From: Nothopassalora personata
Taxonomy: Eukaryota; Ascomycota; Dothideomycetes; Mycosphaerellales; Mycosphaerellaceae
DNA length: 64,000 nt
Direction of reading: 5' to 3'
NCBI GenBank assembly: GCA_033816765.1
Contig: CM066296.1
Location: 124,001-188,000 of the forward strand
A program made the position numbers and the translations under genes. The stretch's first letter is position 1. The number at the start of each line of letters is the position of its first letter. The notes beneath the pieces are model-generated. The model saw nothing but the letters and a program-made list of their open reading frames with translations, ran no database searches and was not told where the DNA came from. This document shows positions 41,551-44,074 of this stretch, one piece after another.

Positions 41551-44074
41551 ATGGTCAGACTCAATTCACTCATGCTACGAAAGGTGCAGTGGAGGTCGGG
41601 GCTGTCGTGGGGCAAGAACTTCCAGCAATGTTTGAACACAAGCGCTCGAACACACAATCACATCGACAGTCATGTAGTCGACGACAATAAGGGTTATCCT
41701 CCAGTTTTCCAACCCGCGGCACACTCAATCAAGCGAATTGAGAAGGAAGACAAAGCTCGTCCATTGAATCATGCTTTTGCCGGTATGACTGGTGGCCAGA
41801 TCTTCCACGAGATGATGTTGAAGCACAAGGTGAAATGCATATGTATGTCTATCTACGCCACGCGCCAATCTCACTTACAGCCAGAGCTGACTGTCGTCAA
41901 CTAACACAGTTGGATATCCAGGAGGCGCTGTGAGAGATGATCAAATTTCCAAAGCTCGCAGGGGTGTCAAAGCATTCAAGTATTGATAAGTCTGCAGATA
42001 CTTCCCGTTTTCGATGCTCTACACGAGTCCAAGGTACGTACACGGAGATTGCAGAGCCAGTATTCCTGCCGCTAATCGTGAACGACAGGCCTTGGACTTC
42101 TTCCTTGTGAAGCACGAACAGGGCGCTGGTCATAGTAGGTTTGCATACCATGAATTGCGGGGATGCGTGTAGACTGGTTGCTAACGATTCTCCAGTGGCC
42201 GAGGGGTGAGTGTTCAATGAGTGTAATATTGCAGGAGACTTGCTGATCAAGGTCGCTGCTCTGTGTAGCTACGCACGAGCTTCAGGTCTACCAGGAATTG
42301 TCGTAGTCACTTCCGGTCCAGGGGCAACGAACCTTATCACTCCATTGCAAGACGCCTTGATGGACGGCACTCCAATGATTGCCTTTGCTGGTCAAGTACC
42401 CACGACCGATCTGGGAAAAGACTCGTTCCAGGAGGCGAATGTCATTGGTCTTGCCAAAGCGTGCACGAAATGGTGTGTTCAGCCTCAGGCAGTGCAGGAC
42501 CTGCCCAGATGCATCGACGAGGCATTCACAGCTGCAACGACAGGTCGACCGGGGCCGGTGCTTGTGGACCTCCCTAAGGACGTAACTGCGACGATTCTGC
42601 AGAACGACTTGCCACTCTCTTCTCACACGTACCCCTATGCAGTGCCAGAACCTCGACCGGACACCAAAGCGCTTGCCGCCAGCATAACTCAAGCCGCAGA
42701 TCTGCTCAACCGCTCCAAACGGCCCGTCATCTACGCAGGTCAAGGAATACTCTCCCACGCAGACGGCCCTGTCCTGCTCAAGCACCTTTCACAGATTGCA
42801 CAGATCCCAGTCACCACAACTTTGCTCGGGCTCGGCGCATACGATGAAGAGGACCCCAAATCGCTCCACATGCTTGGGATGCATGGCTCGTGTTACGCAA
42901 ACATGGCTATGCAAGAGGCAGACTTAATCATAGCTCTGGGTGCTCGGTTCGACGATCGCATCACTCGCAAGGTGTCCGGATTTGCACCACGCGCACGACA
43001 AGCGTCGGTCGAGGGGCGTGGAGGCATCATTCATTTCGAGATCTGGCAGCATAATATGAACAAAGTCGTCGATGCTGATCACCTGATACCCGGCGATGTG
43101 GTGAAAAACTTGGCGCTTTTCATAGAGCTTGTGCACGAGGTTCCATCCGAAGCCAGAGCGGCGTGGTTGCAGCAGATTGCCGCTTGGAAGGCCAAGTATC
43201 CTTGGGCCTATGAGAAGGAAGCAGAGAGTGGCGTCGTGAAGCCGCAGACGGTTATATCAGTGCTCGACGAGTTGACTGCAGACGTGAAAGACAAGACAGT
43301 GATAGCTACGGGCGTCGGCGCACACCAGATGTTTGCTGCACAGGTGTGTCAGGCTTTCGTTGCTCCCTTGCTGCTCCGAATACTGACAGAGCTCTATGTA
43401 GCACTATCGATGGCGCCATCCTCGATCTATGATTACATCCGGAGGCTTAGGCACCATGGGCTTCGGCTTACCGGCCGCCATAGGGGCTAAGATTGCGAGA
43501 CCTGACGCTCTTGTAGTTGATGTGGACGGCGATTCTAGCTTCGCTATGACTATGACAGAATTGACGACGGCAAAATGCTACGGGATCGGAGTGAAAGCAT
43601 TGATACTCAACAACGACGAGCAAGGTGAGAAGGAGGTCTCCAACTGCTCAGTATCCAGAGCATCGAATTTGGATACTGACTACATTCCCAGGAATGGTGA
43701 CCCACTCACAGCAAATGTTCTTCAACGATCGATACTCGCACACACATGGAGCGAACGTGGATTTTGTCAAATTCGGCGAAGCCGCTGGAGTACCGGCTGA
43801 AAGAGTGGAACACATTGCCCAGCTTCGGGAAAAGTTGCATTGGCTACTTTTCGAGACCGGTGATTCTCCCGCGCTGCTCGAGGTCAAGGTGGACCAAAAG
43901 GTTCCAATCCTACCAATCGTCATGCCGGGAACGGCTTTACACGAGTTCATACCGTTTGATGAAGGTGAGAGCTTTGCCCTGCTCACGACAAAAGTGCATC
44001 TGCTGACTGAGAGTGCTATTGTAGAGCGGGAACGAGCCCGGCGCATTCTGACTCGGGAACGATCTGGGAGGTGA
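41551..44074 (+). CDS. acetolactate synthase (AHAS) catalytic-subunit homologue with Trp-to-Ser change
   Basis: ThDP enzyme of the ILV2 family. Nine exons: 41551-41842, 41910-41929, 41998-42033, 42089-42134, 42196-42205, 42269-43343, 43402-43624, 43692-43964 and 44025-44074, giving 674 aa. All introns have GT-AG ends and restore family motifs: IFGYPGGAILPVFDALHESK, KHEQGAGHMAEGYARASGLP (catalytic Glu126), TSGPGATN, GRPGPVLVDLPKDVTA, GARFDDRIT and TSGGLGTMGFGLPAAIGAK. The N-terminus looks mitochondrial (MVRLNSLMLRKVQWRSG, then NTSARTHN). Most unusual: the canonical EQGMVTQWQ reads EQGMVTHSQQ, placing Ser573 (codon 43706-43708) where AHAS has Trp. It lies among P450, GMC oxidoreductase and transporter genes, so it may be a resistance copy or a biosynthetic enzyme. 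Confidence 0.92.

What the first reader, a model, noticed from the sequence alone, without database searches (positions are those of the whole stretch)
41551..44074. Acetolactate synthase homologue with Ser at the inhibitor-resistance Trp, inside a metabolic gene cluster
After removing eight introns the gene is intact, with catalytic Glu and ThDP motifs. The invariant block EQGMVTQWQ reads EQGMVTHSQQ, so Trp (yeast W586, Arabidopsis W574) is Ser573. Changes at this Trp are a classical cause of broad resistance to AHAS inhibitors and also alter 2-ketobutyrate preference. The gene lies among P450, GMC oxidase, transporter and GT genes. The harzianic acid cluster of Trichoderma is a known precedent for an AHAS self-resistance copy. 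So this block may make an AHAS inhibitor; alternatively, the enzyme may do acyloin chemistry in the pathway.
Basis: partly seen in the sequence, partly recalled or inferred. Interest (0 to 1): 0.87.

Follow-up and report, generated by a model that had tools for sequence, protein, structure and literature searches.

The report
Spare acetolactate synthase guarding gene cluster
A fungal gene cluster carries a second, divergent copy of the amino-acid enzyme acetolactate synthase with serine where inhibitors normally grip a tryptophan, so the cluster likely makes an unidentified inhibitor of that enzyme against which this copy would protect its maker.

Summary
The 9-exon gene at 41551-44074 encodes a 674-aa acetolactate synthase (ALS/ILV2) with catalytic residues kept and Ser573 (codon TCA) at yeast Trp586. 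The genome has a separate ILV2 with Trp, 59% identical. The window copy belongs to an old clade with six listed homologues, mostly from Mycosphaerellaceae. All 7 have Ser; all 117 other ALS compared have Trp. In 4 of the 6 species a relative of the window's A-T-R NRPS-like enzyme and/or P450 shares the ALS contig. The window's gene kinds match an NRPS-like cluster co-induced in Pseudocercospora fijiensis-infected banana leaf (PMC5006380), where no ALS is named. Self-resistance is the best reading, not proven: ALS copies in three other fungal cluster types are shown or putative resistance genes. Against it: no enrichment of changes in the inhibitor pocket (p=0.49), and two ALS-bearing species showed neither partner. 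Unexpected: the block also holds second copies of N-acetylglutamate synthase and an ArgE-like deacylase, so precursor supply is a serious rival.

The parts
41551..44074 (+). ALS/ILV2 paralogue, 674 aa; exons 41551-41842, 41910-41929, 41998-42033, 42089-42134, 42196-42205, 42269-43343, 43402-43624, 43692-43964, 44025-44074
   Evidence: 59% to the genome's other ILV2 over 663 columns, 63% over the 359-aa exon-6 match
43706..43708 (+). codon TCA, Ser573, at the position of yeast Trp586 / Arabidopsis Trp574
   Evidence: Ser in 7 of 7 family rows, Trp in 117 of 117 others
42116..42118 (+). codon of catalytic Glu126 (yeast E139)
24534..28463 (+). A-T-R NRPS-like enzyme (AMP-binding, carrier, thioester reductase), candidate core enzyme; introns 25795-25843 and 26474-26541 (most plausible of the options listed)
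   Evidence: Pfam, NCBIfam Thioester-redct just below its cut-off, junctions, motifs shared with homologues
28725..29922 (+). fatty-acid hydroxylase / sphingolipid-hydroxylase-like
   Evidence: PF04116 at E 2.2e-4, below Pfam's cut-off; 29494-29922 piece had no Pfam match
30509..32515 (+). second N-acetylglutamate synthase (ARG2-like) with a presequence-like start
   Evidence: PF04768; other copy at C5:2540153-2542027, 51%
32607..34149 (-). M20 ArgE/DapE-type deacylase, three exons; a second copy elsewhere in the genome
   Evidence: other copy at C11:1464279, 65% over 113 aa
34684..35412 (+). glutathione S-transferase
   Evidence: Pfam
35399..36508 (-). aldo/keto reductase
   Evidence: PF00248
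37072..38790 (-). MFS transporter
   Evidence: PF07690 on 37627-38790; on 37072-37626 just below the cut-off
39212..40687 (+). cytochrome P450 next to the ALS, intron 40132-40197
   Evidence: Pfam, junction, homologues 53-56%
44221..46209 (-). GMC oxidoreductase; membership in the cluster not tested
   Evidence: PF00732/PF05199
46431..47604 (+). Gfo/Idh/MocA oxidoreductase; membership in the cluster not tested
   Evidence: PF01408 on 46431-46970; the 46765-47604 piece had no Pfam match
47898..49421 (-). second cytochrome P450; membership in the cluster not tested
   Evidence: PF00067

Best explanation
The gene is a divergent second copy of acetolactate synthase inside a conserved A-T-R NRPS-like gene cluster, and it likely works as a self-resistance enzyme: the cluster is predicted to make an inhibitor of ALS, and this copy, with Ser in place of the Trp that inhibitors stack on, would keep branched-chain amino acid synthesis running in the producer. 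Shown here: the second copy, the fixed Trp-to-Ser change in 7 of 7 family members, kept catalytic residues, same-contig linkage to the NRPS-like gene and/or P450 in 4 of 6 other species, and the match by gene kinds to a published co-induced cluster. Inferred: the N-terminus takes the protein to mitochondria beside the housekeeping enzyme; loss of the Trp side chain weakens inhibitor binding and may lower the preference for 2-ketobutyrate; the cluster product binds the ALS substrate channel. Also inferred: the NAGS and ArgE-like pair provides an N-acetyl-protected amino-acid substrate that the A-T-R enzyme reduces to an aldehyde.
For: Separate ILV2 with Trp. Ser in 7/7 family rows, Trp in 117/117 others. 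Family clade 100/100 on a branch of about 1 change per column from the other 31 ALS rows, yeast and A. fumigatus included; so not a recent duplicate. E139 is present in 5 of 7 rows (the other two gene models lack that segment); D550, N577, E579, K251, D379, R380 and M525 are kept in 7/7. P. [quoted passage not shown] In Arabidopsis ALS, W574L raises Ki 38- to 35,000-fold over seven herbicides and leaves the enzyme competent (PMC9188596 passages). Precedents: PtsB gives yeast resistance to pterrespiramide A and is not needed to make it (PMC12616698); Af W648 lies within 4.5 A of HB-35018 (PMC12947280). No ILV5/ILV3-type gene was recognised among the window proteins scanned, which are not all 142 ORFs.
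Against: No enrichment of changes in the inhibitor pocket: of 11 AfALS contact residues, 6 are conserved in the other ALS and 1 of those is changed in the family, against 35 of 328 overall, p=0.49. R. collo-cygni and Z. cellare have the ALS but showed no NRPS-like relative among the 120 listed of 1421 hits and no P450 relative among all 28 hits. M. frigidus has both partner genes but no family ALS in the list, and the P. fijiensis text names no ALS. The block also has second copies of NAGS and an ArgE-like gene, which a single-target resistance story does not explain. Gln499, recalled to lie at the ThDP diphosphate, is Ala in 7/7, which hints at altered catalysis. In A. oryzae, dropping ptsB did not visibly change the metabolic profile, so the authors called its self-resistance role in that host unclear. 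No product is known.
Confidence: 0.55

Rival explanations
1. Precursor supply: the block carries extra copies of gateway enzymes (ALS for branched-chain amino acids, NAGS plus an ArgE-like deacylase for ornithine/arginine) that feed the cluster's product, perhaps freed from feedback control. The Trp-to-Ser change would tune substrate choice.
For: ALS, NAGS and M20 deacylase all have a second copy elsewhere. A different P. fijiensis NRPS cluster carries isopropylmalate synthase, dehydrogenase and dehydratase genes (PMC5006380). ALS and NAGS copies both have presequence-like N-termini.
Against: No ILV5, ILV3 or transaminase gene was recognised among the window proteins scanned, so ALS alone would feed the ordinary pathway. 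No ALS is named in the P. fijiensis cluster. In the pts cluster the ALS was not needed for synthesis. The regulatory subunit ILV6 is single-copy; whether this ALS still answers to it is untested.
Confidence: 0.22
2. Acyloin chemistry: the ALS joins a pyruvate-derived unit to an aldehyde released by the A-T-R enzyme, with the Ser making room for the larger acceptor.
For: An A-T-R enzyme that should release an aldehyde is in the block. V186A, Q499A, W503F, Q585H and W586S are changed in 7/7; that several of these lie near ThDP or the channel is recalled. Bacterial ALS-like proteins BbmA and CsmA turn up as solved-structure relatives; that they are bacterial and make acyloins is recalled.
Against: D379, R380 and the Mg-ThDP ligands are kept in 7/7, and the catalytic Glu in the 5 rows that cover it, as for a 2-ketoacid acceptor (role recalled). 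The protein is 56-62% identical to yeast, A. fumigatus and the genome's own ILV2. It has a presequence-like start, while the NRPS-like enzyme is presumably cytosolic.
Confidence: 0.12
3. A retained ILV2 paralogue with no functional tie to the cluster, lying there by chance.
For: Two of six species have the ALS without the listed partner genes. No pocket enrichment.
Against: Same-contig linkage in four of six species, two locus tags apart in P. musae.
Confidence: 0.11

Closest known systems
PtsB / sdt-cluster ALS (pterrespiramide A, HB-35018; PMC12616698, PMC12947280)
   Same: ALS paralogue beside biosynthetic genes; those clusters also hold an A-T-R carboxylic acid reductase and a P450
   Different: Those clusters have a PKS-NRPS core, trans-ER and Diels-Alderase, none of which was recognised among the window proteins scanned.
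Harzianic acid and chlorflavonin cluster ALS
   Same: ALS homologue in a fungal cluster whose product inhibits ALS
   Different: Different products (a tetramic acid; chlorflavonin); the residues behind their resistance could not be read (PMC8674378 not held)
Families 39 and 296 of PMC12616698 (ALS plus NRPS-like enzyme, uncharacterised)
   Same: Same combination of genes named in the Discussion
   Different: Member species and genes are in supplements I could not open; identity with the present cluster is unknown
NRPS-like cluster on scaffold 4 of Mycosphaerella (Pseudocercospora) fijiensis (PMC5006380)
   Same: All seven gene kinds (eight genes) named there occur in the window; a P. fijiensis P450, P0241, is 56% identical to the window's
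   Different: No ALS is named there; that P0241 lies in that scaffold-4 cluster is not shown; other genes not compared by sequence; the figure with flanking genes is not held

Membership tests
AHAS/ALS catalytic subunit (ILV2) | three TPP-enzyme domains with catalytic Glu, ThDP/Mg ligands and 2-ketoacid Arg | tested here: met
   PF02776, PF00205, PF02775 over cut-off; residues; full-length alignment to fungal ALS
AHAS/ALS catalytic subunit (ILV2) | the Trp of the EQGMVTQWQ block (usual, not required for catalysis: W574L is active) | tested here: not met
   Ser in 7 of 7 family rows; Trp in 117 of 117 others
Self-resistance ALS of a fungal biosynthetic cluster | second copy besides a housekeeping ILV2 | tested here: met
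Self-resistance ALS of a fungal biosynthetic cluster | linked to biosynthetic core genes, in more than one species | tested here: met
   in the window, and in 4 of 6 homologue species by organism and contig length: NRPS-like in 2, P450 in 3; 2 of 6 show neither
Self-resistance ALS of a fungal biosynthetic cluster | changes at inhibitor-contact residues | tested here: inconclusive
   W586S in 7/7, but no enrichment over 11 contact residues, p=0.49
Self-resistance ALS of a fungal biosynthetic cluster | confers resistance to the cluster product; product inhibits ALS | not testable with these tools
   no product known
P. fijiensis scaffold-4 NRPS-like cluster | NRPS-like, NAGS, peptidase, AKR, GST, two P450s, sphingolipid-hydroxylase-like genes together | tested here: met
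   against PMC5006380; by gene kind, not by sequence except one P450; the hydroxylase match is below Pfam's cut-off
pts/sdt cluster type | PKS-NRPS core | tested here: not met
   core is A-T-R without a condensation-domain hit; no PKS domain among the window proteins scanned, which are not all 142 ORFs
Families 39/296 of PMC12616698 | BiG-SCAPE family membership | not testable with these tools

The most novel reading that the evidence does not exclude
A cluster that leaf-pathogenic Mycosphaerellaceae switch on in the host makes a natural herbicide aimed at ALS. It is built on an acetyl-protected shadow arginine route (second NAGS, A-T-R reductase, aldo/keto reductase, ArgE-like deacylase) and guarded by an ancient ALS whose inhibitor-binding Trp is fixed as Ser; some relatives keep the guard after losing the factory.
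Probability: 0.15. Interest if true: 0.86.

Novelty: new variant of a known kind. Interest (0 to 1): 0.66.

Why it matters
Three fungal cluster types with an ALS copy are already tied to ALS inhibitors, a target of herbicides and of new antifungals. A further type with an A-T-R core, present in plant-associated Mycosphaerellaceae and matching by gene kinds a cluster induced in diseased banana leaf, would link an unknown metabolite to a predicted target that plants also have. It would turn an open question (what these in-planta clusters make) into a short list of experiments, and it gives a naturally fixed Trp-to-Ser ALS for studying inhibitor insensitivity.

Tried and rejected
Rejected: housekeeping ILV2; splice artefact or missing Trp exon; recent duplication (the window gene has 8 introns, the other copy as I read it has 1, at the same place and phase as window intron 1).

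Led nowhere: pocket-enrichment test (p=0.49). Second copy of the fatty-acid hydroxylase: only 34-37% matches. PMC10607838 holds both enzyme names only in a list of primary metabolism (one passage). Paper searches joining N-acetylglutamate synthase, cluster, self-resistance and fungal and ALS, cluster, fungal, self-resistance and paralog returned none. Sequences of PtsB or of the harzianic acid and chlorflavonin ALS copies could not be obtained, so convergence at Trp586 was not tested. Fungal genomes other than the window's own cannot be searched with these tools, so linkage in relatives rests on contig length and locus tags. No structure was predicted.

Full report
Observation. The window is C10:124001-188000 of a 54.5-Mb genome in 40 contigs. 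Reading 41551-44074 with eight GT-AG introns gives a single 674-aa protein with the three TPP-enzyme domains. Its EQGMVTHSQQ block sets Ser573 (TCA) at yeast Trp586. Solved structures closest in sequence are fungal ALS.

Not the housekeeping enzyme. The genome's other ILV2 at C8:1815246-1816337 reads EQGMVTQWQ and is 59% identical over 663 aligned columns (63% over the 359-aa exon match). The next matches in the genome are at 30% or less. It groups with Zasmidium, Cercospora and Pseudocercospora ILV2, so the host is probably one of the Mycosphaerellaceae (inferred). The ILV6 regulatory subunit is single-copy.

A family with a fixed change. A search of 5.8 billion proteins scored 8000 candidates and listed the best 120. 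Six are 68-81% identical by its BLASTP figure: Ramularia collo-cygni, Cercospora zeae-maydis, Zasmidium cellare, Pseudocercospora musae, P. eumusae and Elasticomyces elasticus. All six carry MVTHSQQ. At the Trp column Ser stands in 7 of 7, Trp in all 117 others (114 listed hits, the genome's other ILV2, yeast, A. fumigatus). In a 38-row tree (28 of the 114 other hits, chosen by hand) the seven form a clade with 100/100 support on a branch of about 1 change per column. Three models are damaged or partial: P0003 and P0005 lose a stretch beside the catalytic Glu, P0006 lacks the N-terminal part.

What changed and what did not. The catalytic and 2-ketoacid residues tested are kept. Family-wide changes include V186A, Q499A, W503F, Q585H, W586S, Q600G and Pro at yeast position 657. 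Over 328 conserved columns 35 are changed throughout the family. The 11 residues that touch HB-35018 in A. fumigatus ALS (PMC12947280, Results parts 1-2 of 3 read) show no excess (1 of the 6 conserved ones; p=0.49). So the pocket as a whole does not prove selection for resistance; the argument rests on the one residue with a known effect. For that residue, W574L in Arabidopsis raises Ki 38- to 35,000-fold while catalytic efficiency changes little (PMC9188596, 12 of 27 passages seen). Leu is not Ser; transfer to Ser is inferred. The lower 2-ketobutyrate preference is recalled.

The neighbourhood is a cluster. Pfam finds an A-T-R NRPS-like protein, fatty-acid hydroxylase (below cut-off), N-acetylglutamate synthase, M20 deacylase, GST, aldo/keto reductase, MFS, P450, ALS, GMC oxidoreductase, Gfo/Idh, P450 and GT2. 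NRPS-like relatives at 50-55% identity occur in P. musae, C. zeae-maydis, Meristemomyces frigidus and E. elasticus; in the three rows that cover that stretch (P0123 does not) the YGSAEVDVTH motif is the same as in the window. P450 relatives at 53-56% occur in P. fijiensis, P. eumusae, E. elasticus, M. frigidus and C. zeae-maydis, plus an unnamed fragment at 51%. Matching organism and contig length puts ALS and NRPS-like together in P. musae and C. zeae-maydis, and ALS and P450 together in C. zeae-maydis, P. eumusae and E. elasticus. That is 4 of 6 ALS-bearing species. R. collo-cygni and Z. cellare show neither in the lists, and M. frigidus shows both partners without a family ALS; missing or badly modelled genes could explain any of these gaps.

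A published counterpart. The P. fijiensis transcriptome paper (PMC5006380; [quoted passage not shown] Every kind occurs in the window; 'acetolactate synthase' does not occur in the paper's text. It reports an NRPS-like homologue in M. musicola (recalled to be P. musae) but not in M. eumusae.

A second surprise. The NAGS in the block is itself a second copy (51% to C5:2540153-2542027), and so is the ArgE/DapE-type M20 (65%; the best NCBIfam models shown are all below their cut-offs). The N-termini of the ALS and NAGS copies look like mitochondrial presequences (6 and 8 Lys/Arg, no Asp/Glu in the first 35 residues; not a trained predictor). Two readings compete: an acetyl-protected amino-acid route used in biosynthesis, or gateway enzymes that feed precursors.

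Judgement. ALS copies in the pts/sdt, harzianic acid and chlorflavonin clusters are resistance copies, shown or putative, beside an ALS-inhibiting product, and PMC12616698 names two further uncharacterised families with ALS plus an NRPS-like enzyme (Discussion read). On that basis self-resistance is the best single reading at 0.55. Precursor supply is the main rival because of NAGS and M20; altered carboligation and chance follow. I did not find the Trp-to-Ser family or the ALS-NAGS-M20 trio described in the listings. These cover open-licence papers only, and searches listed 20 of 915, 20 of 58 and 20 of 24 papers; most listed papers were seen by title and start of abstract only.

Noticed in passing
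G000:C8:1815246-1816337 (L010): The housekeeping ILV2 has Val at yeast Pro192, a classical inhibitor-resistance position; of 117 non-family ALS rows 67 have Val, 41 Pro and 9 other residues, while 6 of 7 family rows have Pro.
   Followed up: partly
30509-32515: Second N-acetylglutamate synthase, 51% to the copy on C5, in the same block as the ALS.
   Followed up: partly
32607-34149: ArgE/DapE-type M20 deacylase, also a second copy (65%). In P. fijiensis a 'Zinc peptidase' with id fgenesh1_pm.4_#_231 is listed among the genes most raised in infected leaf (10.5); whether it is the relative is unknown.
   Followed up: partly
P0005 (P. eumusae ALS): The gene model lacks the catalytic-Glu segment, in a species reported to lack the NRPS-like gene; possible joint decay or a bad gene model.
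   Followed up: no
19350-20891: PLP-dependent decarboxylase-like gene on the minus strand, a possible further cluster member.
   Followed up: no
21313-22072: CDP-alcohol phosphatidyltransferase-like gene (by eye, no family search) between the decarboxylase and the NRPS-like gene; copy number not tested (one search failed).
   Followed up: no
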